From Sporosarcina pasteurii (GTDB taxonomy: Bacteria > Bacillota > Bacilli > Bacillales_A > Planococcaceae): DNA of 64,000 nt. Positions within the stretch are counted from its first letter, which is position 1; each line of letters begins with the position of its first letter. The stretch is taken from positions 2,418,001 to 2,482,000 of the forward strand of contig NZ_CP160452.1 of the NCBI RefSeq assembly GCF_041295575.1, given 5' to 3'. This document shows positions 4,267 to 40,484 of this stretch, piece by piece. The position numbers were made by a program, and so were the translations under genes. Below the pieces are notes generated by a model. The model worked only from the letters and a program-made list of their open reading frames with translations. It did not search any database and was not told where the DNA came from.

Positions 4267-4968
4267 ATGTCTAATTACACAGTCATGATTATTGACGATG
4301 AAAGTCAAATGAGAAATCTTGTTCGCGATTTCTTAGAACGTGAACATTATAAAGTCGTCGAGGCAACAGATGGTGCGCATGCACTATCAATACTTCAACA
4401 AACAAAAACCGATTTATTTATTGTAGATGTTATGATGCCTTTTATGGATGGCTTTGAATTTGCTGAAAAAGTGAAACGCTACTCTCCTGCCCCGATCATT
4501 TTTTTATCCGCGAAAGGTGATGAGTGGGATAAAGTGAAAGGCTTGAAACTCGGTGGAGATGATTATATCGTCAAACCTTTTCATCCCCAAGAATTACTTG
4601 CCCGTGTTGAATCTGTTTTAAGACGAACTTATCAAAGTATTGAGCGAGCAGAATTGTTACGCGTTGGCCCGATCAGTATCGATACGGAATCACATACAGC
4701 GACAGCTGATGGTGAGCCGCTTTCCCTGACATTAAAAGAATATGGTCTATTAAAGTTATTCATCCAAAACACAGGACGCGTTTATTCAAGAGAACAATTA
4801 CTTGAAACGATTTGGGGAGAAAATCACCAAAGTACAGAGCGCACGGTTGATACACATATTAAAACGCTTCGTTTAAAACTTGGCCCCTACAATAATTTTA
4901 TCGAAACGGTTTGGGGCATTGGTTATCGATTTGAGGTGTCACATGAAAAGGAAGAATCTGACGTTTAG
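4267..4968 (+). CDS. OmpR-family response regulator
   Basis: A 233-residue two-domain regulator. The receiver domain (residues 5-118) has the acidic pair IIDDE, the phospho-acceptor Asp 54 in FIVDVMMP, and the conserved Lys in DDYIVKPF. The C-terminal winged helix (about residues 130-226) ends in RTVDTHIKTLRLKLG and WGIGYRF. The kinase gene starts inside its 3' end (26-base overlap) and the Sco gene follows, so all three are one operon. Direct repeats at 4166-4212 are a likely binding site. The signal is unknown; the neighbours suggest copper or respiratory-oxidase stress. Confidence 0.92.
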   Translation: MSNYTVMIIDDESQMRNLVRDFLEREHYKVVEATDGAHALSILQQTKTDLFIVDVMMPFMDGFEFAEKVKRYSPAPIIFLSAKGDEWDKVKGLKLGGDDYIVKPFHPQELLARVESVLRRTYQSIERAELLRVGPISIDTESHTATADGEPLSLTLKEYGLLKLFIQNTGRVYSREQLLETIWGENHQSTERTVDTHIKTLRLKLGPYNNFIETVWGIGYRFEVSHEKEESDV

Positions 4969-25169: not shown

Positions 25170-26306
25170 CTACACAATCTTTAATAAATCGTTAACCCTA
25201 GCATCGAATCGCTCATTCATTTTAGCCGTGCTGATTGTTGGATTAGATGCTGAATTATCTTCAACTGTAACTTGCCCCTTGTGTAACTTTAAGTGAACTG
25301 TACCAGAAAGAGATTGCTGTGTTTCTTGAATAAACGCTTCCAATGCAGTGCGCAAAGGCGTAAACCATAGACCCTCTTCAATCATATCGATTAGCTTTTG
25401 AGAGACGGTTTCTTTGAATTGAGAAACTTCACTGGTCACTGTCCTATTTTCAAGCGTTCGATGTGCTTTTAATAATGTAACTGCTCCCGGACATTCATGA
25501 ATTGTATAAGAGCTACTTCGATTTACATAATTCTCGACTGAATCGATTCTCCCAATTCCATGCTTCCCAGCGATGTTATTTAAGTACAAGAACATATCGG
25601 CTATTTCCATTTTTTGTCCATTCACTTTGACTGGAATTCCTTGCTCAAATTCAATCTCGATAAACTCTGGATCGATTGGCGCATCTTCTATTGCAGCTGT
25701 TATTGCATATACATCCTCGCTTGCTGCTACTTTCGAACAATAACCTAAATATTCATTTTTACGCCCCCATAAGGTTTGGTCAATAGAATTAAGACTGTCT
25801 ACATCATTCAATATTGGAATTTTATTTTCTGTTGCAAATGCAAATTGTTCTCTCCATGTCCAATTTTCTTCATTCACAAGATCAATTAATTTAAGGGATG
25901 TATTTAAAGTTTGTATTAATGTTTCGAAGTGTTTTTGGTCGTTGTCTTTTATCGTAAGACCATGTGCAATTGCAACAGCCTTTTCAATTTCTGCAACTTC
26001 AACTAATTTTTTCGCAATGAGCGGTCGTGATAGCGTGCTCATGAAAGGATACTTATTTTCACAAAAGGCTTGAGCTTGAACTGTAAGCAGGGCATATTGT
26101 TCGGCAAATTCATTTTTTACATCGATCAAATAACTGCTTGTTGCCCCAGCTTGTATTGCTTTCACTCGGATTTCTGTTATATCTTTGTTTCCACCCATAT
26201 CTATGCAAACCGCAACGACGTCATAGCCCGCGTCTACTAACAATCTGATAGCAACAGAAGCATATAAATCTCCACTATAAGCAATAACAACTTTTTTCTT
26301 TCGCAT
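25170..26306 (-). CDS. Argininosuccinate-synthase homologue with altered active-site motifs
   Basis: A 378-residue protein similar along its whole length to ArgG, the ATP-dependent citrulline-aspartate ligase. Family landmarks: SRPLIAKKLVEVAE, IAHGLTIKDNDQKHFE, KHGIGRIDSVENYV, CPGAVTLLKAHRTLE. Key motifs are changed: the P-loop, normally SGGLDTS, reads SGDLYAS (residues 10-16), and the AHGxTGKGND motif reads AHGLTIKDND. The usual LEDP region after LWGR is also lost. No argH lies nearby. It may be a decayed or repurposed paralogue rather than a true ArgG. ATG 26306 has GAGAGGGTG seven bases upstream. Confidence 0.7.
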   Translation of the reverse strand: MRKKKVVIAYSGDLYASVAIRLLVDAGYDVVAVCIDMGGNKDITEIRVKAIQAGATSSYLIDVKNEFAEQYALLTVQAQAFCENKYPFMSTLSRPLIAKKLVEVAEIEKAVAIAHGLTIKDNDQKHFETLIQTLNTSLKLIDLVNEENWTWREQFAFATENKIPILNDVDSLNSIDQTLWGRKNEYLGYCSKVAASEDVYAITAAIEDAPIDPEFIEIEFEQGIPVKVNGQKMEIADMFLYLNNIAGKHGIGRIDSVENYVNRSSSYTIHECPGAVTLLKAHRTLENRTVTSEVSQFKETVSQKLIDMIEEGLWFTPLRTALEAFIQETQQSLSGTVHLKLHKGQVTVEDNSASNPTISTAKMNERFDARVNDLLKIV

Positions 26307-26471
26307 GTTAGGACACCCTCTCAAACACTCAATTGTATATTTATACTGTTATGCGTGTTTTTATAATAACACACCTTTCGAATCTTTCAACCTTTTTAAA
26401 AAAGTCACTCATTTTATTAAACAAAAAAAGACCCCTTCAAAATAGAGGTCTACATCATAACAACGATTCGA

Positions 26472-27857
26472 TTATCGAATTCCATGACTCACCATTGAGT
26501 TCGCCACTTTTAGAAATCCAGCAATATTAGCACCGACAATTAAATTACCTGGATATCCATATTCTTCAGCTGCTTGTAAACAATTGTCATAAATATCTTT
26601 CATAACCAGTTGCAGCTTTTCGTCAACTTCTTCAAACGTCCAACTAAGTCGCATACTGTTTTGAGACATTTCCATTGCAGAAACAGCTACTCCGCCGGCA
26701 TTTGCTGCTTTTGCAGGTGCAAATAAGATATCATTTTCCAGAAAAAGATCTATCGCTTCTTGCGTACAAGGCATATTAGCACCTTCTGCAATTGCTTTGA
26801 CACCGTTTCTAATTAACAGTGTTGCATCGTCTTCATCAAGCTCATTTTGTGTTGCACACGGGATAACGATATCACATGGAATCGTCCAAATTCCCTGACA
26901 CCCTTCAATAAATTTAGCAGATGAATGATATTTTCTATACACTTTAATTCGATCGTTTTCGATTTCTTTAATTCGCTTAATCGTCTCGACATTTATACCA
27001 TTTTCATCATAAATATACCCACTTGAATCACTACATGCAATTACTGTCGCACCAAGCTCAATTGCTTTCTCCATGGCATAGGTCGAGACATTCCCTGACC
27101 CGGATACGATTACTTTTTTTCCTTCAAAACTCATGCCATTCGTTTTTAACATTTCTTGCGTAAAGTATACAGTCCCATACCCTGTTGCTTCTCTTCGCCC
27201 GAGGCTTCCGCCGTAATTTGGGTCTTTTCCAGTGAAGACGCCAGGTTGGAACCCACCTCGGATGCGATTGTATTGCCCTGCCATATAACCAACTTCTCGT
27301 CTTCCAACACCTATATCACCAGCGGGTACGTCTAAGTCTGGACCTAAGTATTTCTGCATTTCCGTCATAAAGCTTTGAATAAACCGCATAATTTCTCGTT
27401 CTGATTTATCTTTCGGATCAAAATCCGAGCCACCTTTTCCAGCGCCTATTGGCTGACCTGTCAGTGAGTTTTTAAAGATTTGTTCAAATGCTAAAAACTT
27501 CATAATGCTCAGATTGACCGAAGGATGGAAGCGAATCCCGCCTTTATACGGACCCAGCTCACTATTAAATTGAACACGATACCCTCTATTCACATGCACT
27601 TTTCCTTGGTCATCTTCCCAGGCAACCCGAAAAGTAATAATGCGATCCGGCTCAGTAATTCGCTCAAGGATACCGTCTTCAATATAATGTGGATTTTTAA
27701 CAAAAACCGGACGAAGTGAATCGAAAATTTCTCTTGTTGCTTGGAGAAATTCCGTCTCTCCTGGATTTCTCTTTTTTATTAACTCATACACTTCATGCAC
27801 GTAATCATTTGCTAGTTTTTTAGGATCATTATATGTTTCATTAATATTCGTCAACAT
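26472..27857 (-). CDS. gdhA: NADP-type glutamate dehydrogenase
   Basis: A 461-residue hexameric-type glutamate dehydrogenase (E. coli GdhA class) that aminates 2-oxoglutarate. The substrate-binding region RVQFNSELGPYKGGIRFHPSVNLS, catalytic-lysine segment GAGKGGSDFDPKDKS, PAGDIGVGRREVGYM, and nucleotide site VSGSGNVSTYAMEKA are intact. GAAGGA lies eight bases before the ATG. It is distinct from the catabolic RocG/GudB type, so ammonia assimilation is the likely role. Monocistronic. Confidence 0.95.
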   Translation of the reverse strand: MLTNINETYNDPKKLANDYVHEVYELIKKRNPGETEFLQATREIFDSLRPVFVKNPHYIEDGILERITEPDRIITFRVAWEDDQGKVHVNRGYRVQFNSELGPYKGGIRFHPSVNLSIMKFLAFEQIFKNSLTGQPIGAGKGGSDFDPKDKSEREIMRFIQSFMTEMQKYLGPDLDVPAGDIGVGRREVGYMAGQYNRIRGGFQPGVFTGKDPNYGGSLGRREATGYGTVYFTQEMLKTNGMSFEGKKVIVSGSGNVSTYAMEKAIELGATVIACSDSSGYIYDENGINVETIKRIKEIENDRIKVYRKYHSSAKFIEGCQGIWTIPCDIVIPCATQNELDEDDATLLIRNGVKAIAEGANMPCTQEAIDLFLENDILFAPAKAANAGGVAVSAMEMSQNSMRLSWTFEEVDEKLQLVMKDIYDNCLQAAEEYGYPGNLIVGANIAGFLKVANSMVSHGIR

Positions 27858-28095
27858 ACCCTCATTCCTTCCATATTTATACTTTCTGTAATGTCGGAAT
27901 TTTATATATTACTCTATAATACAATTAATTAACTATTTATACAACATGAGCACCGACTAATTCATGGCATTTTAAGGTCTTTTTTCAAATAAAGTACTTT
28001 TCTTTTTCGTTAAAATGAGTTACTATTTAATTATTCAAACATTTCCGTTAAAAGGGATTTTATGAATATACCCAATCAGAAAGAAGGAGAAAACT

Positions 28096-28227
28096 ATGAA
28101 AATCATACGACCTTTAGTAAGTGCAAATCTTATGTTACTATTCGTTTTCGCTCTTCTCCCAGTTCTTTTTATTAAACCAGATATTGAAGTTATACAAAGT
28201 TTACTAGCATATATAAATAAAGAATAA
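28096..28227 (+). CDS. Small membrane peptide, 43 aa, paralogue of the ORF at 37005-37145
   Basis: Read from sequence: ATG 28096 with AAGGAG six bases upstream and TAA at 28225. The product has a basic N-terminus, one TM helix (about residues 9-26, ANLMLLFVFALLPVLFI) and an amphipathic tail PDIEVIQSLLAYINKE. Residues 10-43 align without gaps to residues 13-46 of the ORF at 37005 (17 of 34 identical, including ANL, LP, PD.E, QS and NK). A matching second copy with its own ribosome site argues that both are real genes. I do not recognise the family; a spore-related or membrane-protein modulator role is a guess. Confidence 0.65.
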   Translation: MKIIRPLVSANLMLLFVFALLPVLFIKPDIEVIQSLLAYINKE

Positions 28228-28329
28228 TGCTAAACGTGAATAAAAGCAAACGTTTTTAGTAGTTAATGAAAAATCATTCGTCTTTTAACCTATATTTCAG
28301 TGTCTTTTAAAGATTTCTCTAAAAAACAT

Positions 28330-28358
28330 TTGACTTTTTATTTTTTATTAAGTATGAT
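28330..28358 (+). promoter_or_regulatory. Sigma-A promoter of the serA T-box transcript
   Basis: TTGACT (28330-28335), a 17-base spacer and TATGAT (28353-28358). The expected transcription start is near 28365. Confidence 0.75.
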
Positions 28359-28364
28359 AGGTCA

Positions 28365-28636
28365 CATTAAAACTATTATTCTAATTATTTTGATGGAGAT
28401 ATATTTTACATTCCTAAATCTTCAGAGAGCTAGTGGGTGGTGAAAACTAGTGATTTTGTGTAAAAGAGCACTCCTGAATAGGTAGACTGAACTTAAGTAG
28501 GTCTATCCGGGTCATGCACGTTATGCATTGTTCTTTGAGGCCACTTATTTATAGTTGGCAAAAAAGGGTGGTACCGCGTGAGTATTTTCAGTCTTTCGCC
28601 CCTTACGATTTTTTGTAAGGGGTGGAGGACTTTTTT
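28365..28636 (+). promoter_or_regulatory. T-box riboswitch, serine type, controlling serA
   Basis: The leader has the T-box Stem I features (AGAGAGCTAG...GGTGAAAACTAG), then AAAAGAGCACTCCTGA, where the codon aligned with the specifier of other T-boxes is AGC (Ser). A UCC Ser codon overlaps close by. The conserved T-box AGGGTGGTACCGCG is at 28565-28578. It is followed by a terminator hairpin with a 17-bp stem containing G-U pairs (28590-28631) and six T. The UGGU bulge would pair with the tRNA discriminator base, giving a G-U pair for tRNA-Ser. Uncharged tRNA-Ser should favour the antiterminator and raise serA expression. Confidence 0.9.
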
Positions 28637-28876
28637 ATTTTCCATTGAAGGGAGTTTTTAACATGTTAGTAGATTGATAAAGTTTACATATTTGAGAAAC
28701 AACAAGTCAAGCAACAAAGTTGTCTGCATTGGCCATAAAGGTCATCGCTTTCCCTACGGATGTATCGCTAACAATTAATGGTATGAAAATTGGATTACGG
28801 ATTATCTTTTACAACAATCATTATTCGCCGAAACTGCTACGGCACAACATTTCTATATTCAGGAGGCTATCGACAA
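28637..28876 (+). other. Unexplained 240-base stretch between T-box terminator and serA
   Basis: It contains a good ribosome site GAAGGGAG followed by an ATG with only four sense codons before TGA (28663-28677). After that come short stop-interrupted frames until AGGAGG at 28861, the serA ribosome site. It may be the remains of an upstream gene deleted from the T-box operon, or a functional leader. I see no recognisable domain. Confidence 0.4.
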
Positions 28877-30463
28877 ATGACTTTTAGAGTATTAATTACA
28901 GACCCATTAAGTGAAGAAGGGATTTTCCCACTAAGACAATCGGAGAACCTTGAAATTACAATAGAAACAGAACTATCTCCAAATGACCTAATTGCAATGA
29001 TACAGGATTACGATGCACTTCTAATTCGTAGTCAAACGACTGTGACCCGTGAAGTAATTGAAAATGCACCTAACTTGAAAATTATTGGCCGCGCTGGGGT
29101 TGGTGTTGATAATATCGATTTGGAAGCTGCAACAGAGCATGGAATTATCGTTGTAAACGCTCCGGATGGCAATACAAACTCTGCAGCAGAACATACAATG
29201 GCTATGTTATCAGCACTTGCACGAAAGATTCCGCAAGCGTTTCTATCCCTAAAAAATCAAATTTGGGATAGAAAGTCATTTCTCGGAGTTGAGATTAAAA
29301 ACAAAACACTTGGGATTGTAGGACTTGGCCGAATTGGCACTGAAGTTGCAGCAAGAGCTAAAGGTCAAAGAATGCATGTTCTTGCATACGACCCATTTCT
29401 AACAGAAGAAAAAGCGCATAAACTTGGGATTACGAAAGGGACACTTGAAGAAGTCCTAAACCAAGCTGATTTTATTTCTATTCATACACCTTTATTGAAA
29501 GAAACAAGAAACTTAATCGATGAAGAAGCTTTTGAAATGATGAAAGACGGCGTACAACTGATTAATTGTGCACGCGGTGGAATTGTAAATGAAGATGCAT
29601 TATACGATGCTATTGTAAGAGGAAAAGTTGCTGGTGCTGCGCTCGATGTATTTGAAGTAGAGCCTTTTGTTGATCATAAATTACTGACACTTCCTCAAGT
29701 AATTGCGACACCGCATTTAGCTGCTAGTACAATCGAAGCTCAAGAAAGTGTTGCGATTGACGTAAGCGCAGATGTTGTTAGCTTTTTAAATGGAGGACTT
29801 GTGCAAAATCCAGTAAACCTCCCTTCCGTGTCCAAAGAAGTGATGGGCAAAGTTGGACCTTTCTTTGATTTAGCGGAGAAATTAGGGGCTTTTGTTTCCC
29901 AATTAATTGATGGGATTGTTGAGCAAATTACAATTCACTATTACGGAGATTTAGCAGGCTTCGATGTCCGTCCTTTAACACGTAATACATTAAAAGGATT
30001 GTTAAAAGGAAATCTAGGCGACCATGTCAATGACGTCAATGCCAAATATTTAGCAGACCAAATTGGGATTGTCGTAAATGAATATAAAACCTCTACGACA
30101 AAAGGTTTTACCAATTTATTAACAGTAGAAGCGAGAACGAAAAACGGGACGCGAAGTGTTTCAGGAACATTATTGAATGGTTTAGGTGGACGCATCGTTA
30201 AGGTAGATAAATATTACGTTGACGTTGTTCCAGAAGGGAATTTAATTTTCATTAAACATAAAGACCAGCCCGGGGCGATTGGTCGTGTTGGAACTTTACT
30301 AGCGAAATCGAATATTAATATTGCAACGATGCAAGTTGGACGAGATAATATTGGTGGAGATGCCATTATGATGCTGACTATTGATAAATATGTCGACGGT
30401 TATAATGTTAACCAACTAAAAGAATTAGAAGATATTTCTGACGTGACTGCAATTCAATTGTAA
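28877..30463 (+). CDS. serA: D-3-phosphoglycerate dehydrogenase
   Basis: The committed step of serine synthesis (3-phosphoglycerate to 3-phosphohydroxypyruvate). The 528-residue long form has a substrate/NAD domain with [42 protein letters not shown] and [13 protein letters not shown]. An intervening domain and a C-terminal ACT domain follow (about residues 455-528, [18 protein letters not shown]). ATG 28877 has AGGAGG upstream and starts [11 protein letters not shown]; a longer frame back to 28790 is not likely to be used. It is controlled by the serine T-box upstream. A probable phosphoserine phosphatase lies convergently at 30717. Confidence 0.95.
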
Positions 30464-30480
30464 GATTAATAGCTGATGCT

Positions 30481-30525
30481 AATCCCTCAGCATGTGGTGG
30501 ACATACACATGCGAGGGATTTTTTA
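30481..30525 (+). terminator. Terminator of serA
   Basis: A two-part stem (AATCCCTC with GAGGGATT, and GCATGTG with CACATGC) followed by TTTTTT. Confidence 0.85.
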
Positions 30526-30547
30526 TTTGAGAGAGAACTCCTGAGAT

Positions 30548-30654
30548 GTGTTACGTATTTTCAAGGGAGTGCTGGTTTTTTTCCGGAGAACGTTGTGTTC
30601 TTTCGGCAAAACATTGAGTACTTTCCAAAATGCGTTGCATACTTTTAAGCGCCC
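30548..30654 (+). repeat. Degenerate tandem repeat, five units of about 21 bases
   Basis: Units begin at 30548, 30569, 30592, 30613 and 30634 and share a pattern like GTTGNGTACTTTC..NAAAACG; the second unit is 23 bases. It lies in the intergenic space between convergent serA and the HAD gene. Function is unknown. Confidence 0.55.
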
Positions 30655-30690
30655 AAAAAGCAGATAGAAGCGAATTCTACCTGCTTTTAT
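30654..30690. terminator. Terminator of the HAD phosphatase gene (probably bidirectional)
   Basis: Stem AAAAGCAG with CTGCTTTT plus inner pairing, with A/T runs both sides, 27 bases past the stop at 30717. Confidence 0.7.
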
Positions 30691-30716
30691 TGAAGCTTAT
30701 TAACGGAAAGCCTTCT

Positions 30717-31511
30717 CTACTGAACAATTGGTTGATTTAGAATTGTATATAGCTCATCCAAGTGCTTAATTTCATAGGTCGGCGTCACTTCTTCAATTGC
30801 CGCATCATTTTCCCGGTTTATCCAGACAGATGGAATACCGGTTTGGTTTGCACCTAAAATATCTGTCATTCGATTATCTCCGACCATTAACGCTTCCTCT
30901 GGCTTTAACTGACAAAGATCGAGTGCATGCTCGAAAATTGAGCGATCCGGTTTCCCAACGCCGAACCCCCCCGAAATAATAATATGGTCGAAATAAGGAA
31001 CGAGTTCAGGCGTAATATCTAATTTTGTCTGTTGCAAACTTGGTGATCCGTTTGTAATGAGTACCAACTGATAATCTTCTTTTAATTTATCCAACACACT
31101 GAAAGTTTCTTCGTAGATAAATGGGCTATCTTTTCGATTTTCTACAAACAGTTCTGCGAGTTCTTTTCCAAACGTGGCATCATCAATGCCCATACGCTTC
31201 AATCCACCTGTCCAAGCATTTTGGCGATACGTCGGAACGATTTCTTTCATCTTTTGAAAAGAATCTCCTTCATCGTCAAATGTGCCCCACAATCCTTCAA
31301 ATGGATTAATGCCAATCATTTTTGTAAAGTCATAGGTTTCATACGTCGCATATAATTGACGAGCTTCTTCACGCACAGCTTCTTCTAACTTCCCTACATC
31401 TAGCGAGTGGCGTTCAGATGCCGTTTGACATGTTTTTTCAAATGCAGTTTTTACACTTTTTTTGTCCCATAATAACGTATCGTCTAAATCGAAAAATATA
31501 GCTTTAACCAT
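30717..31511 (-). CDS. HAD-superfamily phosphatase, probable phosphoserine phosphatase (YsaA-like)
   Basis: A 264-residue HAD subfamily IA hydrolase. Motif I is FFDLDDTLLW (nucleophile Asp 8, acid Asp 10), motif II LVLITNGSPSLQ, motif III Lys in GVGKPDRSIF, and motif IV MVGDNRMTDILGA. An alpha-helical cap occupies about residues 20-110. Similarity in length and N-terminus to B. subtilis YsaA, reported as a phosphoserine phosphatase, and its position beside serA suggest it dephosphorylates phosphoserine. HAD substrates cannot be fixed from sequence, so this is inference. Confidence 0.75.
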   Translation of the reverse strand: MVKAIFFDLDDTLLWDKKSVKTAFEKTCQTASERHSLDVGKLEEAVREEARQLYATYETYDFTKMIGINPFEGLWGTFDDEGDSFQKMKEIVPTYRQNAWTGGLKRMGIDDATFGKELAELFVENRKDSPFIYEETFSVLDKLKEDYQLVLITNGSPSLQQTKLDITPELVPYFDHIIISGGFGVGKPDRSIFEHALDLCQLKPEEALMVGDNRMTDILGANQTGIPSVWINRENDAAIEEVTPTYEIKHLDELYTILNQPIVQ

Positions 31512-31667
31512 TATTTACAACTCCCTTTTCATTCAAAAAAATCAGTAATATCAAGTATAGCATGTGATGTTGGATAAAATCGTTTTATTGACGCTATTTC
31601 ACTAGAATTTTACATTTTTTCTTCCAATTCCTTATCCAGCGTCTACATATTCATAATATTTTTTTAC

Positions 31668-31703
31668 CAATAAAATAAGCAGCCCATAATAGAGCTGCTT
31701 ATT
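31668..31703 (-). terminator. Terminator of the first ilvD-type gene
   Basis: A perfect 10-bp stem (31674-31683 with 31694-31703) with a T-rich minus-strand tail, right after the stop at 31706. Confidence 0.75.
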
Positions 31704-31705
31704 AC

Positions 31706-33421
31706 CTATTGATAGGTAGGCTGTTTTTCTCTAGAAGATTTCTTATAAAAATCCGTCACCGCGCCGACCGATGCACAAGATACGGTATGTGCATACTTTC
31801 CAAGTATACCTTTTGTCTGCAGTGGTGGGGCTACCCAATCTTTTTTCCGTACTTCAAATTCTTCTTCGGATACAGCCACTTTAATTTCCTGTGTAATCGA
31901 GTTAATTGTAATTTCATCTTCATCTCGAATAAAGGCAATCGGACCGCCATCTTGCGCTTCTGGAGCAATATGACCGACAACTAATCCATGTGTTCCTCCT
32001 GAAAATCTACCATCCGTTAGTAAAGCAACTTTCTCGCCTAATCCTTTTCCAACAAGAATTCCAGAAATCGATAACATTTCCGGCATTCCCGGTCCGCCTT
32101 TTGGTCCAACGTGGCGAATTACGAGTACATCTCCTGCTTGAATTTCATCATTCATGACAGCTTCCGTCGCTGCTTCTTCTGTATTAAAGACACGTGCTGG
32201 TCCAGTATGTTCTGTGACGGACACGCCAGACATTTTTGCGACCGCACCATTTGGAGATAGATTTCCTTTCAATATGACTAAAGGACCTTCTTTACTAAAT
32301 GCTTGATCAATTGGCCTAATAATTTTTTGTCCAACTGCTAAATCAGGAGCTTCTTGTAAGTTTTCAGCAACTGTTTTACCTGTTACCGTTAAGCAATCGC
32401 CATGTAAGTAACCTGCTTCAAGTAACATTTTCATCACTGCTTGAACACCACCAATGCGATGCAAGTCTTCCATGACGTATTTTCCGCTCGGTCTTAAATC
32501 CGCGAGATGCGGCGTTTTCTTTTGAATACGGTCGAAATCATCCATCGTTAAATCTACGTCGATTGCATGAGCCATTGCTAATAAGTGTAACACTGCATTC
32601 GTCGAACCGCCTAATGTCATGACAACCGTAATCGCATTTTCAAACGCTTCTTTTGTCATAATATCTTTCGGATAAATCCCCTGTTCCATCAAGTTATACA
32701 GTGCATGCCCTGCCTCTTCAACATCAGCAAGTTTTTCCGCTGATTCAGCTGGGTTTGAAGAGCTTCCTGGCAAACTCATCCCCATCGCTTCAATCGCTGA
32801 GGACATCGTATTTGCAGTGTACATTCCACCGCATGAACCTGCTCCAGGACAAGCGTTACATTCAATACGATTAAGCTCTTCTTCATCGATTTGACCGCTA
32901 TTTAATTGACCAACACCTTCAAAAACAGATACAAGATCAATACTCTCTCCGCGTAATTTCCCTGCAGCAATCGTTCCACCATAAACGAAGATAGATGGGA
33001 CTTCAGCATTGGCAATCGCAATCATACAACCCGGCATATTTTTATCACAGCCGCCAATTGCGACTAAGCCATCTAAATTTTCTCCGCCCACGACGGTTTC
33101 AATCGAGTCTGCAATGACATCGCGACTTGGCAATGAATAACGCATTCCGCTCGTTCCCATTGAAATACCGTCTGCAATCGTGATCGTATTAAAAATCATC
33201 GGCACTGCACCTGCAGCTTCTGCACCTTTTTTCGCTGCAATTGCTAGTTTATCAATATGTACGTTACACGGTGTTACTTCACTCCATGTACTTGCAATTC
33301 CTACCATTGGCTTTTCAAATCCTTCATCTGTCAATCCAACGGCTCTTAACATTGCACGGTTCGGGGCTCTTTTCGTACCCTCGCTAAATACTTTACTATT
33401 AATTCTCAAATCTTTTTTCAA
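31706..33421 (-). CDS. Dihydroxy-acid dehydratase, [2Fe-2S]-type branch (IlvD/Edd family)
   Basis: A 571-residue iron-sulfur dehydratase that converts dihydroxy-acids to 2-keto acids in Ile/Val synthesis, or a related sugar acid. Cysteines occur in [15 protein letters not shown] and [15 protein letters not shown], the pattern of the cyanobacterial/plant-like IlvD branch. This differs from the E. coli-type IlvD encoded at 33625-35295. TTG 33421 is preferred (AGAGGTGG seven bases upstream, normal N-terminus); the frame extends to 33499. It probably carries dihydroxy-acid dehydratase activity, but two enzymes side by side leave room for different substrates. Confidence 0.85.
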
Positions 33422-33512
33422 AGTTTTCCCACCTCTCCCTTCCATTGTACTCATAACTTTCTTATAATTCAATGTCTTCATCCGAATGATAATTCGCAAG
33501 ATTTTTCACATA

Positions 33513-33550
33513 AGAAAAGGCGAAGGGAAATTTACACTTCCCTTCACCTT
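33513..33550 (-). terminator. Probable terminator between the two ilvD-type genes
   Basis: A 12-bp stem (33517-33528 with 33539-33550) favoured on the minus strand by a G-U pair, with a short TTTT tail. Confidence 0.6.
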
Positions 33551-33624
33551 ATATAATAATTTATAAAAATAACATCGTGTGTGTGTTTTCTACTTTAGCA
33601 GGTTCGCCTACTAAACTCTCAATA

Positions 33625-35295
33625 CTAGATACTCATAATACCGCCTTTTGAGGCATTCGTAACCAGTTTAGAATACCTTGCTAACCATCCTTTTTTAATT
33701 TTCGGCTCGAATGGTTTTAAGTTTTCTTGTCGCTTCGCTAATTCTTCATCCGAAATCTTAACGTTCATTGTCCGGCTTGGTAAATCAATCTCGATTATAT
33801 CCCCATCTTCAACTAAAGCGATTGGACCGCCTTCAGCTGCTTCAGGTGAAATATGTCCAATTGAGATGCCGCGTGATGCACCACTAAAGCGTCCATCTGT
33901 AATCAGCGCTACTTCTGTTCCAAGTCCTCGTCCCATAATCGCAGATGTTGGCGCAAGCATTTCCGGCATGCCGGGTCCGCCTTTAGGTCCCTCGTAGCGA
34001 ATGACGACAACGTGACCTGCTTGTACTGTTCCGTTATCGATTGCTTCTTGTGCTTCATCTTGTGAATTGAAAACAATCGCTTCGCCTGTGAATGTTTGGA
34101 TAGATGAGTCCACTGCCCCTACTTTGATGACAGATCCTTCTGGAGCAAGGTTACCGTAAAGTACCGATAATCCGCCGACCGGACTATATGGATTGTCTTT
34201 CGTACGAATCACTTCGGTGTTCGTAATCTCGTGTTCTCCAACAAGTTCACCCATCGTTTTACCAGTCACTGTCATTCTTTCTGGATGAATTGCCCCTGGA
34301 ATTTTCGTGAGCTCATTAATTATTGCTTCGACACCACCAGCTTTATTAATATCATCCATTGAAATATCAGATGCCGGCATGATTTTCGCTAAATATGGAA
34401 CTTTAGCGGCGATTTTATTAATATCTGCTAAATCATAGTCAATGCCTGCTTCATTTGCTATGGCTAATGTGTGAAGAACTGTATTTGTAGAGCCACCCAT
34501 TGCCATATCGAGTGCAAATGCATCATCGATTGCTTCTTTCGTAATGATATCTCGTGGTTTCACGTCTTCTTTAATCATACGAACTAAATGTTTTGCTGCT
34601 TCGCGGACTAATTCTTTACGCTTTTCACTTGTTGCCACAATTGTACCGTTGCCTGGAAGTGTCACGCCTAGCATTTCCATTAAACAGTTCATAGAATTCG
34701 CTGTAAACATCCCCGAACAAGATCCGCATGTTGGACAAGCATTCATTTCAATATCTAGTAATTCCTCGGCAGACATTTTCCCAGATTTATGGGCGCCTAC
34801 CCCTTCAAATACTGATGTTAAGGAGATTTGTTGCCCCGTTGAGCTAATTCCTGCTTCCATCGGTCCACCTGATACAAAAACAGAGGGAACATTCGTACGA
34901 GCAGCAGCCATCAGCATGCCTGGCGTAATTTTGTCACAGTTTGGAATGTAAAATACACCATCAAACCAGTGCGCATTAATAACCGTTTCCGCTGAGTCTG
35001 CAATGAGTTCACGACTTGGCAATGAATAACGCATACCAATATGCCCCATTGCAATCCCATCATCCACACCGATTGTATTAAACTCGAAAGGTATCCCACC
35101 TGCTTCAACAATTGCTTCTTTTACAATATCAGCAAACTCTCGTAAATGAACATGGCCTGGAATAATATCTATGTATGAGTTACAAACACCAATAAACGGC
35201 TTTTCTAAATCTTTCGGCTTCACTTTTCCTGTTGCGTATAAAAGACTTCGGTGAGGAGCACGGTCAACACCGATTTTAATCATATTACTTCTCAT
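33625..35295 (-). CDS. ilvD: Dihydroxy-acid dehydratase, Bacillus/E. coli type
   Basis: The standard Ile/Val-pathway dehydratase, 556 residues. It shows [66 protein letters not shown] and the C-terminal [23 protein letters not shown]. It tracks the B. subtilis IlvD sequence closely. ATG 35295 has AAAGGTG nine bases upstream. No T-box or CodY site is evident upstream. It is separated from its distant homologue by a probable terminator. Confidence 0.93.
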
Positions 35296-35447
35296 TTGAA
35301 CACACACCTTTAACATTAAGTAGTTAAACATATATTAAATTGCGCGTTGCCCGCTGTCAACCTAGTTGTAGAATAAGTGGAAACTATCCCTCAATTCCCA
35401 AATATTTCTCCTTATATCATTGCACTTTATACGCCATTTCCAAGCAC

Positions 35448-35487
35448 TAAAAAATCTCTCACTTACAAAGTGTAGTAAGAGATTTTT
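35448..35487 (-). terminator. Terminator of the LysM-GH18 gene
   Basis: Stem AAAAATCTCT with AGAGATTTTT and inner pairing, minus-strand T-run, next to the stop at 35492. Confidence 0.75.
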
Positions 35488-35491
35488 ATGT

Positions 35492-36775
35492 TCATAATTT
35501 GATTATCGTAAAATTATCATTAAGTAACAGCCAATTTTGCGGGAACGAAAGGCCTAACTTCCAATACATGATGCCGCCAAGTCCCAGTTCATTCATTAAA
35601 TCAAATTTCGCTTGGATGCTTCTTGCATCTTCGAACCAGACTTCGTGTAAAACCCCAGCAGCGTCTGTATATTGGAAAAAAGGTGCTTGCGCTTGAAAAT
35701 CATATTGAATCTCCGCCCCGTTTTGCAAGGCGATTTGAATGGCTTGTTGTGGACTGATTGCACGAGCAGGCGGGCCTCCTTGGGGAGGAAACGGGAATGT
35801 CCAATCATACCCATATAAATTTTGACCTAAAAAAATCTTTTCGTTCGGTATGACACTTGCCGCATAGTTCATGACACTTCGGACAGGTTGTATTGGACTT
35901 ACCGCTTGGGGGTCACTAAACGTATATCCCCATTCGTAAGTCATAATCATAACATAATCCAATATTTCTCCTATTGCTGCATAATCATGTGCACCGTAAA
36001 TTCCAGTTGTGATATCGGAGGCTTTAGGAGCGACAGCAGCCGATATTCGTAAACCAGCCATTCGGAAACGGTCCCGGGCTTTACGTAGAAAATTAGTATA
36101 TAGCTCGCGATCTTCGGGATAAAGTAGCTCGAAATCAAAGTGAATATCCCCGTATCCTTCATCATTCGCAATTTGAATTAAATTTCCGAACAACTGATTT
36201 TGAGCTGCGTCATCGTTAAAAATTGCACGCGCTAAATCAGCACTAAACGCAAAATCTTCTAGATTACTGACAACTAGCGCATTCGTGACCCCTGCCTCAT
36301 CTGCGATTTGCAAAATATTCGCCGTAGAAGGAGGAGTTACTGAGCCATCGCGATTTACTTGATAACTAAACATGCCTAGAAAAGTTAAATCCCCTACACG
36401 ATTTCTCACTTCATCAATCATCGACTGAGCGACAGGCGTTCTAGGCTCTACGTATAAAAAACTGTTGATTGGACGCTTTTGTTTCTCAGGAATTCTTAAT
36501 TGCTGCCCAACTTGTAATATCGCATTTGTTGATATGCCGTTTATCCTAGCTAACTCTTGATAGCTGATGCCATATAAATTTCCTATTATATATAACGACT
36601 GCCCTGGTTGAACGACGTGATAACTTCCTTCGATTGGAATGACGAGCGCTTGCCCAGTTACGAGTTGGGAAGGATCCGGAATTTCATTTGCCGTCGCAAT
36701 CTCTTCGGGAGAGATGCCGTATGCTCTCGCAATCCGATATAAACTTTGTCCTCTTTGCACAACATGAATTTGCAA
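35492..36775 (-). CDS. sleL: Spore cortex-lytic LysM-GH18 protein, YaaH/SleL type
   Basis: A 427-residue protein, the same length as B. subtilis YaaH. Two LysM domains (residues 2-48 and 52-97; HVVQRGQSLYRIARAYGIS and HVVQPGQSLYIIGNLYGIS) are followed by a GH18 TIM barrel. The barrel has a DIHFDFELL catalytic-type motif and the C-terminal LGLGGIMYWKLGL. There is no signal peptide, as usual for proteins deposited in the spore from the mother cell. It acts on cortex peptidoglycan during germination. A coat-protein gene lies divergently at 37273. Confidence 0.9.
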   Translation of the reverse strand: MQIHVVQRGQSLYRIARAYGISPEEIATANEIPDPSQLVTGQALVIPIEGSYHVVQPGQSLYIIGNLYGISYQELARINGISTNAILQVGQQLRIPEKQKRPINSFLYVEPRTPVAQSMIDEVRNRVGDLTFLGMFSYQVNRDGSVTPPSTANILQIADEAGVTNALVVSNLEDFAFSADLARAIFNDDAAQNQLFGNLIQIANDEGYGDIHFDFELLYPEDRELYTNFLRKARDRFRMAGLRISAAVAPKASDITTGIYGAHDYAAIGEILDYVMIMTYEWGYTFSDPQAVSPIQPVRSVMNYAASVIPNEKIFLGQNLYGYDWTFPFPPQGGPPARAISPQQAIQIALQNGAEIQYDFQAQAPFFQYTDAAGVLHEVWFEDARSIQAKFDLMNELGLGGIMYWKLGLSFPQNWLLLNDNFTIIKL

Positions 36776-36925
36776 TTACATCATCTGCCTTTCCTATTAA
36801 AAAAGCATTCTTTTCTATGTTTATTAATTTAGCAAGTTTAATATGCATCATCGCCCAGGAAATCGATTGTAAATGTTTTTCAAGTTTATCTCAGATACTT
36901 TTTCACATAAATAATTAAATTTTGT

Positions 36926-36955
36926 ATAACTTTTCTTGGGCGTTCGCATAGACTA
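36926..36955 (+). promoter_or_regulatory. Possible sigma-E/sigma-K-type promoter before the 46-aa ORF
   Basis: CATAGACTA (36947-36955) fits the sigma-K -10 pattern CATANNNTA. ATA (36926-36928) lies 18 bases upstream, as in mother-cell promoters. Weak evidence, supported only by the sporulation neighbourhood. Confidence 0.3.
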
Positions 36956-37004
36956 AAACTGAGTGTACATTTTCTAAACTAAATCAATGAAAGAAGGGGA
37001 ACAT

Positions 37005-37145
37005 TTGAGTTTTAAAAAGTGTGTTCGAAAATTTTTTTATGCGAACTTACTATTGCTCGTTGTTTATACTTTTCTTCCGATTTTAATCCTTTATCCTGAT
37101 TTAGAAATTTTCCAATCTAGCCTTAGTCATTTGAATAAGGATTAA
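37005..37145 (+). CDS. Small membrane peptide, 46 aa, paralogue of the ORF at 28096-28227
   Basis: Read from sequence: TTG 37005 with GAAGGGGA upstream and TAA at 37143. It has a basic N-terminus (KKCVRKFFY), one TM helix (about residues 12-29, ANLLLLVVYTFLPILIL) and the tail PDLEIFQSSLSHLNKD. Residues 13-46 match the 43-aa ORF at 28096 at 17 of 34 positions without gaps. It stands between the spore cortex enzyme gene and the CotF-like gene with about 125 bases to the latter, so it may belong to the sporulation programme. No known family is recognised. Confidence 0.65.
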   Translation: MSFKKCVRKFFYANLLLLVVYTFLPILILYPDLEIFQSSLSHLNKD

Positions 37146-37272
37146 AAGATGTTTCTCTAGAATAGTAATTTCAGATAATGATTTTTCCTGTTCATACACA
37201 CATATTTCTACATCCCTCAACCATACTAAGTACGCTACAAAAATGAAGTGACAACAGGAGGATCATTAAAAT

Positions 37273-37911
37273 ATGCATACCGAACCGAACAAACAGCCTC
37301 AAAATATGCAAACAGGGTATGTCCCCCCACAAATGAACCACGGAGGACACGAACTATTTGATGTACATGAAGTATTATCCGCAACAATCGGAGCATTAAA
37401 CCAAGCAATGATTTTACGTCCGCATGTCAAAGACCCTGAACTACTCGATATTTTGGATCGCCAACACCGGTTTTCGTTAGACGAATATAATATTACCGTG
37501 GAAGCTTTTAAAACGGGGAAAGACCCATCTCACCCAACCGGTACGTATATGATGAAACAAGAAAATGATTTTGTTTATGGGATGAAGTCGACCCAGCCTA
37601 AATCCCCAATGCAACCAGGCGCTGAAATTTCAGATGAAATGATTTCCGGCTTTTTGCTTAGTTCTGCGAAAACAGGAGCAACTGCGCGTGCAGCTGCTGC
37701 GCTCGAAACTTGTAACCCTGTGCTGCGCCGTGTACTTGCTGATTCCATACCAAACTGTATTGAAATGGCATATGAATTATCCATTTACCAAAATAAACAT
37801 CATTATTATCAAGTACCACAACTCGCACCGGAAGATATGCAAGGCCTGTTAAATGCTTATACGACGAGTCAAGGTCAACCTAGTATGCCCCCGCCAACGA
37901 ATTTACAATGA
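37273..37911 (+). CDS. Spore coat protein, CotF-like
   Basis: A 212-residue protein with a polar Pro/Gln/Asn-rich start (residues 1-25) and a C-terminal CotF/ferritin-like helical domain. The domain has HELFDVHEVLSATIGALNQAMILRPHVKDPELLDIL and, further on, FLLSSAKTGATARAAAALE and NPVLRRVLADSIPNCIEMAYELSIYQNKHHYYQVPQL. This pattern is typical of Bacillales CotF-family coat proteins. CAGGAGGATC precedes the ATG and a terminator follows. It is presumably made in the mother cell. Confidence 0.85.
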   Translation: MHTEPNKQPQNMQTGYVPPQMNHGGHELFDVHEVLSATIGALNQAMILRPHVKDPELLDILDRQHRFSLDEYNITVEAFKTGKDPSHPTGTYMMKQENDFVYGMKSTQPKSPMQPGAEISDEMISGFLLSSAKTGATARAAAALETCNPVLRRVLADSIPNCIEMAYELSIYQNKHHYYQVPQLAPEDMQGLLNAYTTSQGQPSMPPPTNLQ

Positions 37912-37920
37912 TAATATTCA

Positions 37921-37949
37921 AGCCAAGCGTAAAAGCTTGGCTTTTTTAT
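37921..37949 (+). terminator. Terminator of the CotF-like gene
   Basis: A perfect 9-bp stem (37921-37929 with 37936-37944) with a six-T tail. Confidence 0.85.
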
Positions 37950-38038
37950 CGTAAACCAACAATTAGATCATTGCGGTAGTCAAATAAACAAGGTATCATT
38001 TAAGTTATCATTATTTTATGAAAGAATGGGTGAAGCAG

Positions 38039-38698
38039 ATGCGCGTAGCAATATTCGACTTTGATGGAACTTTATATTCAAAAGAAACGTACCAAATTAT
38101 GATGGACCATTTAAAAGAACATCCTTTATACCGCAAAAGATATCCTCAATTTATGCGAACAATTTTACCACCATATATTGCGAGCAAAGCAAAAATCTAT
38201 CCAACCGAGAAAATGCGCGAACGTTCTATGCAGATTTACTTAAATGCATTAAACGAACTAACAATCGAAGAAGTTGATATTTACTTTGAACAAATTGCAC
38301 AAAAAATGCGCGAAGACTTCAACGAAGCAATTGTTGCCAAAGTAAAAGAACATGCTTCTGACGATTTTTATATGATGTTGGTATCGGGTGCATATACGCC
38401 TTTACTACATACAGCTGTTCAAGGTTTGCCTTTTGACACGATTATTGGGACAGATATCCCCGTTGCGAATGGGAAAATTACTTCAAAATCGCCAATTTAT
38501 CATATTCAAGGAACTAGGAAAAACGAGAAAATCCAACAAGTCTTACACGGTAAGAAAATAGATTGGCAAAACAGTTTTGCTTATGCAGATAGCTACTCTG
38601 ACTTATCGGTCTTAAGCTTAGTCGGCAATCCTGTCGCCGTTCAACCCGAACCGAAACTCCAAACAATCGCGGAAAGGCGAGAATGGACCATCCTATGA
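38039..38698 (+). CDS. HAD-IB family phosphatase (SerB-like fold)
   Basis: A 219-residue HAD hydrolase with motif I IFDFDGTLYS (nucleophile Asp near residue 7), motif II MLVSGAYTPLL, motif III around GTRKNEKIQQV and motif IV YADSYSDLSVL. This arrangement with a helical cap is the IB subfamily that includes phosphoserine and related phosphatases. ATG 38039 has GGGTGA six bases upstream; ATG 38018 has no ribosome site. Substrate is unknown. The window carries another HAD enzyme beside serA, which is the better phosphoserine phosphatase candidate. Confidence 0.8.
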   Translation: MRVAIFDFDGTLYSKETYQIMMDHLKEHPLYRKRYPQFMRTILPPYIASKAKIYPTEKMRERSMQIYLNALNELTIEEVDIYFEQIAQKMREDFNEAIVAKVKEHASDDFYMMLVSGAYTPLLHTAVQGLPFDTIIGTDIPVANGKITSKSPIYHIQGTRKNEKIQQVLHGKKIDWQNSFAYADSYSDLSVLSLVGNPVAVQPEPKLQTIAERREWTIL

Positions 38699-38706
38699 AC
38701 ACAACA

Positions 38707-38756
38707 AAAAACACCAATCTTGTGTAGAGACTGAACTGCTAACGATTGGTGTTTTT
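38707..38756 (+). terminator. Terminator of the HAD-IB gene
   Basis: A 13-bp stem (38707-38719 with 38744-38756) with a long loop and T-run. Confidence 0.7.
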
Positions 38757-38766
38757 ACTCCGATAA

Positions 38767-38803
38767 TAAAAAAGAGTACACGGACAATTGTCGTGTACCT
38801 TTT
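38767..38803 (-). terminator. Terminator of the ferredoxin gene
   Basis: A long palindromic stem around GTACAC..GACAATTGTC..GTGTAC with a minus-strand T-run. Confidence 0.75.
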
Positions 38804-38809
38804 CGAGAA

Positions 38810-39049
38810 TTATGCAATATTATAAAATGACTTTGCTTTTTCCAAAAACGGCAGATCTTCATCTAGTAAATCTTCTTCGTGGTAAATTGCGTCTACTGGA
38901 CAAGCAGCCACACAAGCACCGCAATCAATACAAACATCTGGATCGATAAAGTATTGATCTTCTCCTTCTTCAATACAATCTACTGGACAAACGAGAACAC
39001 AATCTGCGGCTTTTTCTGTAATACATGCTCCTGTAATGACATAAGCCAA
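38810..39049 (-). CDS. Ferredoxin with two iron-sulfur centres (7Fe/8Fe type)
   Basis: A 79-residue electron carrier of the Bacillus/Mycobacterium seven-iron ferredoxin size. Cysteines fall in ACITEKAADCVLVCPVDC (first, 3Fe-4S- or 4Fe-4S-type set) and CIDCGACVAACP (second 4Fe-4S set). It begins MAYVITGACI, a typical start for these proteins, with AAGGAGG upstream. Acidic C-terminus. The redox partner is unknown; no oxidoreductase is adjacent. Confidence 0.92.
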   Translation of the reverse strand: MAYVITGACITEKAADCVLVCPVDCIEEGEDQYFIDPDVCIDCGACVAACPVDAIYHEEDLLDEDLPFLEKAKSFYNIA

Positions 39050-39169
39050 TCATAACGCCTCCTTCTCATCAATTTACTCGACTTCTATGTCTATATAAAT
39101 AGTTTAATATACTTTAATGGAAATAAAAACCGAAATGACTTTGATTTAGTCGAATAGAATTTCCCCTCT

Positions 39170-39197
39170 AGACTTTTCGCTATAGATAAGGTATAAT
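39170..39197 (+). promoter_or_regulatory. Promoter of the structured RNA at 39200-39571
   Basis: TAGACT (39170-39175), a 16-base spacer and a perfect TATAAT (39192-39197). No open reading frame with a ribosome site follows. Confidence 0.6.
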
Positions 39198-39199
39198 AA

Positions 39200-39571
39200 A
39201 GTATTGTTAGAAATGGTAGCATACAATACTTGATACTCTGGCATTCTACGGAATGTTTTTGAAGATTCTTATTCACACTGGCGCGACTTAGGGGTCGTAA
39301 GGACGTAAGAGTAGGTAGGGCTTACGTTGTTTAAGGTAAGAAAACTCCCCAGTGGAACAATTACCGCGGTTTAGAAAGAAAAACTTTCTATAATGATAAT
39401 TCGATAATACGAATTTTAATAACATAATTCAACAATGGTTGTTACCGAGGAACTCATACGAAAAGCGCTCAAGGTCTAAATGTAGCTCACTTTGACCGAA
39501 GTGACTTGTACGTTTTCAGTTCCTAAATAAAAACAAAGGGATATGCTCCTATTATGGGCATATCTCTTTTC
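39200..39571 (+). ncRNA. Unassigned structured non-coding RNA, about 370 nt
   Basis: A 526-base gene-free stretch (39050-39575) carries a consensus -10, many local helices and a terminator. Helices include AGTATTGT/ACAATACT (39200-39230), CATTC-TACG-GAATG (39242-39255), CACTGG/CCAGTG enclosing CGAC/GTCG and ACGTAAG/CTTACGT, GAAAG/CTTTC, AATTCG/CGAATT, AACAA/TTGTT and AGGAACT/AGTTCCT. It ends in a GATATGC/GCATATC terminator at 39535-39571, shared with the opposing metA. It does not match RNase P, tmRNA, SRP RNA, S-box or T-box motifs known to me; I could not judge 6S RNA reliably. It may be a known Firmicutes RNA that I do not recognise. Confidence 0.5.
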
Positions 39572-39575
39572 CAAT

Positions 39576-40484
39576 TTATTTCCACTCAAAAGGCGTTTGT
39601 TGATAGACATAATAATTAAGCCAATTTGAAAAAAGTAAATGCGTATGAGATCGCCACGTATTTAACGGTTGTTTCGTCGGATCATCATTTGGGAAATAAT
39701 TTTCCGGTACGTCGATTGTTAATCCTTTATTTATATCACGTTCATATTCTTCTCCCAGTGTCCCCGCATCATATTCTAAATGTCCTGTAAGCATAATATG
39801 CTTTCCATTCTCAGACATAATCATGAATGCGCCCGCATCTTTTGAATGTGCAAGTAATTTAAGCTCAGGATGTTCTTTAATTTCTTTCATTGAAACGTCT
39901 GTATACCTAGAATGGGGGACGTTAAATTCATCATTAAAACCTCTCACTAGCTCTATAGTTGGGTCAGTTAACTGATGTTGATAGACACCCGAACACTTTT
40001 TTTCCAATGGGAATTTATTAATGCCATAATGATAATAAAGTGCCGCCTGTGCGCCCCAGCAAATATGTAAAACAGACGTCACATTGTCTTTTGACCATTC
40101 CATAATGTTCGTTAACTCTTCCCAGTAATTCACATCCTCAAAACGTAAATGCTCGATTGGTGCCCCGGTAATAATGAGTCCATCAAAACGACGATTTTTC
40201 ACATCTTCAAAAGTCTCATAAAAATTGTCTAAATGTGATTTACTAATATTTTTCGATTCGTGGGTCGCTGTATGTAAAAATGTTACATTGACTTGAAGAG
40301 GTGTATTTCCTAAAAGACGTAAAAGCTGTAATTCCGTCCGTTCCTTCTCCGGCATTAAATTTAATATCGTGATGTTTAGCGGACGAATATCTTGAGTTGA
40401 CGCACGTTCTTCATCCATTACAAATATTTTTTCTTGCTTTAATAATCGACGTGCTGGTAAAGCTTTCGGAATATTTATCGGCAA
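39576..40484 (-). CDS. metA: Homoserine O-acetyltransferase (MetA family)
   Basis: A 302-residue class-I-glutamine-amidotransferase-like acyltransferase for methionine synthesis. The acyl-accepting Cys 142 is in LHICWGAQ, and the His 235/Glu 237 pair is in TGHLEYD. Residue 111 is Glu, the variant linked to acetyl-CoA rather than succinyl-CoA use in this family. Start is TTG 40484 with GGAGAGAG upstream. No SAM riboswitch is visible in the 156 bases before it, unlike many Bacillus met genes. It follows an ABC permease gene on the same strand. Confidence 0.93.

What the first reader, a model, noticed from the sequence alone, without database searches (positions are those of the whole stretch)
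28096..37145. Two paralogous micropeptide genes 9 kb apart (43 and 46 codons)
Seen: ORFs 28096-28227 and 37005-37145 each have a ribosome site, a basic N-terminus, one TM helix and a tail of the form PD.E..QS.L...NK(E/D). They align without gaps over 34 residues with 17 identities. Random short ORFs would not match like this, so both are probably translated members of an undescribed family. Inference: the second lies between spore cortex and coat genes, so a sporulation or membrane-regulatory role is possible.
Basis: seen in the sequence. Interest (0 to 1): 0.75.

Follow-up and report, generated by a model that had tools for sequence, protein, structure and literature searches.

The report
Conserved membrane micropeptide family in Bacilli
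Two tiny genes in this bacterial genome are real, related and preserved by evolution; they encode small membrane proteins with scattered relatives in several other families of Bacilli, and they match no curated protein family that was searched here.

Summary
The two ORFs (43 and 46 codons; the second starts with TTG) share 19 of 42 residues and are the only copies found in their genome. They belong to a real family without a curated name. In the genus (Sporosarcina) 57 of 68 genomes carry it. In 49 there is one copy, between glutamate dehydrogenase (gdh) and a LysM-GH18 gene (called sleL here). Seven genomes, the window's included, have two copies from one duplication: pepA next to gdh, pepB between sleL and a Coat_F gene. 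Purifying selection is clear (pooled dN/dS 0.20). A sister clade of ten species lacks the gene but keeps gdh and sleL adjacent. Profile searches reach homologous 42-52-residue peptides in other families of the class, patchily and at unrelated loci. The ancestral copy has a conserved sigma-A-type promoter, which argues against a family-wide sporulation role. pepB has a CATANACTA box in 7 of 7 genomes, as expected of sigma-E/K, so only the duplicate may have moved into sporulation. Most likely each is a single-pass membrane micropeptide acting as an accessory or regulatory subunit of a larger membrane protein. The protein-level facts are firm; partner and function are inferred.

The parts
28096..28227 (+). 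pepA: 43-codon membrane micropeptide gene, ATG start, the copy next to gdh
28078..28089 (+). ribosome binding site of pepA (AGAAAGAAGGAG)
   Evidence: sequence; SD match of 6 bases in 50 of 57 pepA genes
28021..28026 (+). position of the conserved -10 (TATTAT in most relatives, TACTAT here); the -35 is degenerate in the window
   Evidence: alignments read by eye; the strict pattern is found in 37 of 57 pepA upstream regions but not in the window's
37005..37145 (+). pepB: 46-codon paralogue, TTG start (TTG in 7 of 7 pepB genes)
36990..36999 (+). ribosome binding site of pepB (AAAGAAGGGG)
   Evidence: sequence; SD match of 5 bases in 7 of 7 pepB
36947..36955 (+). CATAGACTA, sigma-E/sigma-K-like -10 of pepB; AC at 36929-36930, 16 nt upstream, fits a sigma-K -35 (consensus recalled)
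   Evidence: CATANNNTA in 7 of 7 pepB upstream regions, 0.70 expected by shuffling, 0 of 2000 shuffles reach 6; the AC at 16 nt seen by eye in G000, G067 and G045 only
36902..36930 (+). possible sigma-A promoter of pepB (TTCACA-17-TATAAC), similar in G067, not seen in the other five pepB genes
35492..36775 (-). LysM-GH18 protein (name SleL recalled), divergent from pepB; the ancestral neighbour of the locus
   Evidence: Pfam LysM and Glyco_hydro_18; synteny
26472..27857 (-). gdh, glutamate dehydrogenase, divergent from pepA
   Evidence: Pfam ELFV_dehydrog; synteny
37273..37911 (+). Coat_F-domain protein downstream of pepB, with its own CATACTAA box at 37222-37229
   Evidence: Pfam Coat_F; upstream comparison by eye

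Best explanation
SHOWN: pepA and pepB are genuine protein-coding genes, by their pattern of change, of one family of 42-52-residue peptides with a single hydrophobic span. In Sporosarcina the family goes back to the ancestor of 57 species, between gdh and sleL, and was duplicated once in the window's clade. It has homologues in other families of the class. Most pepA genes form a stand-alone unit with a conserved sigma-A-type promoter, a ribosome site and often a terminator-like hairpin. INFERRED: the basic N-terminus stays inside, residues about 7-26 cross the membrane with the LP.L motif near the outer end, the chain turns at (N/K)PD, and the C-terminal helix lies outside along the membrane surface or on a partner. 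The peptide is made during growth and acts as an accessory or regulatory subunit that binds a larger integral membrane protein or complex, as KdpF, AcrZ, CydX and Prli42 do with theirs. pepB is a later copy between sleL and a Coat_F gene that probably gained mother-cell sigma-E/K control and so supplies the peptide during sporulation. The partner is not identified. Because the neighbouring genes differ between families, neither gdh nor sleL is likely to be the partner.
For: 19 of 42 identities. 57 of 68 genus genomes; gdh-pep-sleL order in 49 of the 50 single-copy genomes. dN/dS 0.04-0.47 in 25 of 25 disjoint pairs, pooled 0.20. SleL tree of 76 rows: the 10 non-carriers one clade (100/98), the 8 genomes of the duplication clade one clade (100/95). 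Peptide tree of 63 rows: pepB (7) one group (98/91), pepA of that clade (7) one group (98/79), both together 95/96. Sigma-A pattern in 37 of 57 pepA, 0.08 expected; CATANNNTA in 7 of 7 pepB, 0.70 expected. Homology to the f52 peptides: hhalign probability 96.8, score 46.0, against 150 zone-permuted controls with mean 11.7 and maximum 22.1 and a reversed control of 12.9. Further matches in f27, f37 and f46. AlphaFold2: helices 4-26 and 29-42, mean pLDDT 78.
Against: No expression, translation or localisation data. No partner, and no gene neighbour shared between families. Distribution outside the genus is patchy: 5 of the 13 matching genomes among 343 sampled from the class lie outside it. pepA of G045 has an in-frame TAA. 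pepB of G056 has lost the PD motif, and G057, inside the duplication clade and 88% complete, has no pepB beside sleL. The strict sigma-A pattern is missing in 20 of 57 pepA genes, the window's included. The pepB box counts related genomes, so its shuffling test overstates independence. A terminator-like hairpin was found after 38 of 57 pepA but only 1 of 7 pepB, and after neither window gene. The AlphaFold model rests on 5 sequences, pTM 0.37.
Confidence: 0.55

Rival explanations
1. A sporulation membrane-peptide family: the peptides act in forespore or mother-cell membranes, as SpoVM and CmpA do.
For: pepB lies between sleL and a Coat_F gene and has CATANACTA in 7 of 7 genomes. The ancestral locus also borders sleL.
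Against: pepA has a conserved sigma-A-type promoter (37 of 57). Relatives in other families have sigma-A-like hexamers by eye (not tested) and no spore neighbours where looked: tRNA/5S rRNA and a thiL-like gene, tuf-rpsJ.
Confidence: 0.2
2. A membrane-active toxin of a type I toxin-antitoxin module or a similar growth inhibitor.
For: Size, hydrophobicity and positive N-terminus; duplicated copies, in tandem in G533.
Against: One locus in 49 of 50 single-copy genomes, with dN/dS 0.20; no plasmid or phage match for one representative at E<=1. No Rfam RNA over the genes (only a T-box and BsrC within 26000-40000). No match to a toxin family in Pfam or NCBIfam.
Confidence: 0.08
3. A precursor of a secreted signal or antimicrobial peptide: the hydrophobic part is a signal sequence and the C-terminal helix is released.
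For: Basic N-terminus, hydrophobic core, then a polar tail with conserved P, D, Q, N.
Against: Conservation runs through the hydrophobic core (LP.L, F, AN) as much as the tail. No exporter, peptidase or receptor gene seen as a constant neighbour.
Confidence: 0.08
4. Chance ORFs or a non-coding RNA whose structure happens to leave a frame open.
For: Short length; no curated family.
Against: 25 of 25 disjoint pairs have dN/dS below 0.5; the protein profile reaches other families, and the controls exclude composition alone.
Confidence: 0.01

Closest known systems
KdpF, AcrZ, CydX (small subunits of membrane complexes; PMC11539335 passages seen; PMC7267776 and PMC4325964 seen only in the search listing)
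   Same: Short, one TM helix, protein-level constraint; work by binding a larger membrane protein.
   Different: No sequence match in Pfam or NCBIfam; no partner operon found; a C-terminal helix and LP motif of its own.
Prli42, stressosome anchor of Firmicutes (passage of PMC11539335 seen; details recalled)
   Same: Short basic N-terminus plus TM helix, found in Firmicutes.
   Different: No family match; Prli42 acts with its cytoplasmic N-terminus (recalled), while here the C-terminal helix is long and conserved.
SpoVM, CmpA (small sporulation peptides; recalled)
   Same: Small; pepB lies at a spore locus.
   Different: No TM span in SpoVM or CmpA as recalled; no family match; the ancestral copy has a sigma-A-type promoter.
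Fst/TxpA-type type I toxins (passage of PMC10903887 seen for Fst; TxpA recalled)
   Same: Small hydrophobic peptides of Firmicutes.
   Different: No antitoxin RNA found, fixed vertical locus, no plasmid or phage match for one representative, no family match.

Membership tests
Small single-pass membrane proteins (broad kind) | Fewer than about 60 residues with one hydrophobic helix, protein-coding and conserved | tested here: met
   KD19 means 2.26-2.52, model helix 4-26, dN/dS 0.20; translation and membrane location not measured
Small single-pass membrane proteins (broad kind) | Binds and modulates a larger membrane protein | not testable with these tools
   needs crosslinking or pull-down; no constant gene neighbour between families
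KdpF, Prli42, DltX and other curated small-protein families | Match to a curated Pfam or NCBIfam model | tested here: not met
   best are KdpA models at E 0.046 and 0.066, each in 1 of 16 members; that models of each named family are in these libraries is recalled
Type I toxin-antitoxin toxins | Known toxin family match and antisense antitoxin RNA | tested here: not met
   no family match; no Rfam RNA over the genes; an undescribed antisense RNA and toxicity were not tested
Sporulation proteins | Sporulation sigma-factor promoter | tested here: inconclusive
   CATANNNTA in 7 of 7 pepB but 12 of 57 pepA; sigma-A pattern in 37 of 57 pepA
Family defined here (A3 + A5 peptides) | R in the N-terminal part, hydrophobic core, LP motif, acidic residue, C-terminal helix, alignable along the whole length | tested here: met

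The most novel reading that the evidence does not exclude
A previously unrecognised micropeptide family scattered through several families of Bacilli, normally under vegetative sigma-A control at different chromosomal sites. It is a membrane component or regulator; in one Sporosarcina clade a duplicate was captured between sleL and a Coat_F gene and rewired to mother-cell sigma-E/K control, a micropeptide that changed developmental programme by duplication.
Probability: 0.35. Interest if true: 0.65.

Novelty: new member of a known kind. Interest (0 to 1): 0.5.

Why it matters
Proteins this short are often missed by annotation. Here one is shown to be a constrained, vertically kept gene in 57 species, with homologues in other families of the class, no curated family and a duplication that can be placed on a tree. 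That gives a clean target: a pair of paralogues with different promoters in one genome, ten sister species without the gene at the same site, and relatives in other genera. It turns 'are these tiny ORFs real?' into a direct question about which membrane protein they serve.

Tried and rejected
Family scans: Pfam, NCBIfam and PHROGs gave nothing better than E 0.02 (and 56, 57 for two outside relatives). The KdpA matches (E 0.046 and 0.066, each in one of 16 members) and the G093 match (E 4e-5, at the C-terminal end of a 570-aa frame) were treated as spurious; I suspect that frame is KdpA but did not identify it, because the scan of it failed. The G812 match (25 residues inside a 250-aa frame) was also treated as spurious. 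G279 (E 6e-4) looks like a member by eye, but it is one genome of a one-genome genus and is not among the hits, so it is left as a candidate.

gdh or sleL as functional partner: rejected as unlikely, because neighbours differ between families. The 'order' search covered the same number of genomes as the family search (261) with the same carriers, and added nothing. A phylum-wide sample of 348 genomes gave only G533 and G812. PDB sequences: only designed TIM barrels at E 0.0015 or worse over 14 residues or fewer. A Spo0A-like box, ArgR-like half-sites and a TTATAC/GTATAA repeat seen by eye in the gdh-pepA region were not tested and are not claimed. sigma-F/G readings of the pepB upstream region were weighed by eye only and looked weaker than CATANACTA. 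Literature: 'Sporosarcina' with 'small membrane protein' gave 0 papers; some searches returned small-protein and stressosome papers, seen as listings; in the main text of Pro-SMP finder (PMC10903887) 'Sporosarcina' occurs 0 times (passages seen). The tool cannot search papers for a sequence, so I do not claim that these peptides are absent from print.

Full report
What was checked. The first (28096-28227) starts with ATG, the second (37005-37145) with TTG. They share 19 of 42 residues without gaps. The assembly that holds the window (G000, one contig) has exactly these two copies. Neither matches Pfam or NCBIfam at E<=1; 16 aligned members gave only a KdpA-type match at 0.046 and 0.066, each in one member, and PHROGs nothing better than 0.024.

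Where the family lives in the genus. Three contigs that carry the gene are named Sporosarcina in the public collection (S. jiandibaonis and two uncultured Sporosarcina). In that genus 57 of 68 genomes have the gene. Among 261 genomes of the taxonomic family, the only other match is a piece of a 570-aa frame in G093, taken as spurious. Seven genomes have two copies and 50 have one. In 49 of those 50 the gene lies between gdh (divergent) and sleL (convergent), with sleL 51-244 nt after the stop in 48 of them and 1.8 kb away in G012 (distances to tblastn hit ends). The fiftieth is G057.

Presence, absence and duplication. Of the 11 genomes without the gene, 10 keep gdh and sleL adjacent with a gap of only 106-151 nt between hit ends; the eleventh, G049, is 75% complete and shows no sleL match. 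A tree of 76 SleL proteins (67 of the genus, 9 from other genera) puts these 10 together (100/98) as sister to the other 57, and puts the eight genomes G000, G067, G008, G039, G040, G045, G056 and G057 together (100/95). Seven of these eight have a second copy, pepB, between sleL and the Coat_F side; G057 (88% complete) has a different gene there. In the peptide tree (63 rows, 46 columns only) pepB is one group (98/91), the pepA of that clade is one group (98/79), and the two together are one group (95/96). So one gain (or one early loss) and one duplication, followed by a loss in G057, explain the pattern. In 9 of 9 genomes of other genera checked, no gdh match lies in the 3.8-4 kb on the 3' side of sleL.

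Selection. Over 25 disjoint pairs (chosen from 306 pairs with pS below 0.6 and at least 6 differences) the pooled counts are 222.8 synonymous changes in 749.7 sites and 190.2 non-synonymous in 2619.3 sites, dN/dS 0.20. Single pairs run from 0.04 to 0.47; four pepB pairs from 0.08 to 0.12; the median of all 306 is 0.25. Against this: pepA of G045 has an in-frame TAA, and pepB of G056 has lost the PD motif.

Gene signals. Start codons, chosen by script from the ribosome site, are ATG in 54, TTG in 2 and GTG in 1 of 57 pepA, and TTG in 7 of 7 pepB. A Shine-Dalgarno match of five or more bases is present in 56 of 57 pepA and 7 of 7 pepB. Alignments of upstream regions within four subgroups, 49 genomes in all, show TTTAC(A/T)-17-TATTAT. 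The strict pattern TT[TG]ACN-17-TAT[TA]AT occurs in 37 of 57 pepA upstream regions against 0.08 expected from mononucleotide shuffles; it is degenerate in the window's own clade. A terminator-like hairpin follows in 38 of 57 pepA and 1 of 7 pepB by a simple scan, and in neither window gene. pepB genes have CATANNNTA 40-69 nt before the start in 7 of 7, with 0.70 expected and 0 of 2000 shuffles reaching six; pepA has it in 12 of 57. In the window AC lies 16 nt upstream of that box, as in the recalled sigma-K consensus; by eye this holds in G000, G067 and G045 and not in the other four. The Coat_F gene keeps its own CATACTA box downstream of pepB, so pepB looks like an independent unit.

Beyond the genus. 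A 35-row profile searched over 398 genomes of the class found two short ORFs outside the genus, in G533 and G279. The G533 peptide has a tandem twin in the same genome, 69% identical. A relative of it occurs in 20 of 41 genomes and 4 of 7 genera of that family, f52. In the ten f52 loci read, a thiL-like gene (Pfam AIRS in the one scanned) lies upstream on the other strand in 10 of 10; downstream there is a Cys/Met-metabolism enzyme in 7, a CrcB-like gene in 2 and another protein in 1 (names by eye except one of each scanned). A tRNA gene lies in 12 of 12 f52 loci given to Rfam and a 5S rRNA gene in 5 of 12. Profile-profile comparison of the Sporosarcina and f52 alignments gives probability 96.8 and score 46.0 over 46 columns. 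The reversed f52 alignment scores 12.9, and 150 versions with columns permuted within the N-terminal, membrane and C-terminal zones score 11.7 on average and at most 22.1, so hydrophobicity alone does not explain the match.

A combined profile over 343 genomes of the class matched 13 genomes, 5 of them outside the genus: G533 again, G462 (f46, 3e-11, between EF-Tu and ribosomal S10 genes), G292 (f27, 2e-8) and G454 and G501 (f37, 4e-5 and 4e-4). These are short ORFs with ribosome sites by eye. E-values near 1e-4 are weak, given the spurious G093 match of about the same size, so f37 rests on the pair resembling each other. The family is therefore patchy outside Sporosarcina: most sampled genomes show no match. 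A phylum-wide sample of 348 genomes added nothing. One representative found nothing among phage or plasmid records at E<=1.

Structure and mechanism. The likely topology, N-terminus inside, follows from the positive-inside rule and was not tested. The most probable job is that of the better-studied small membrane proteins, which act mainly by joining larger complexes (PMC11539335, passages seen). The partner is unknown. Since gdh, tRNA/thiL-like genes and tuf take turns as neighbours, location does not point to it.

Verdict. The sporulation reading is not supported for the family and is open for pepB alone.

Noticed in passing
window 28381-28606(+): T-box leader (Rfam RF00230, 113 bits) between pepA and serA, presumably controlling serA.
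   Followed up: no
window 39253-39340(-): BsrC small RNA (Rfam RF01410, 79 bits).
   Followed up: no
window 31706-33499(-) and 33625-35331(-): Two tandem related proteins, about 42-45% identical by tblastn cross-hits in this and related genomes, that look like dihydroxy-acid/phosphogluconate-type dehydratases (name recalled), lying between pepA and sleL.
   Followed up: no
L114 about 4330-4700 (G057): In the clade member without pepB another gene with a hydrophobic start lies upstream of sleL, behind a CATACGATA sequence, in the place of pepB.
   Followed up: no
L138 and L142 (G961, G962), upstream of the f52 peptide: TGATAGCGCTTACA, a sequence like a CcpA cre site (recalled consensus), overlaps the likely promoter of the relative in these two genomes.
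   Followed up: no
L132 and L137 (G533): Two tandem copies of the micropeptide, 69% identical, the second about 155 nt after the first, near a 5S rRNA and a tRNA gene; a Bacillaceae-1 RNA lies in the same locus.
   Followed up: partly
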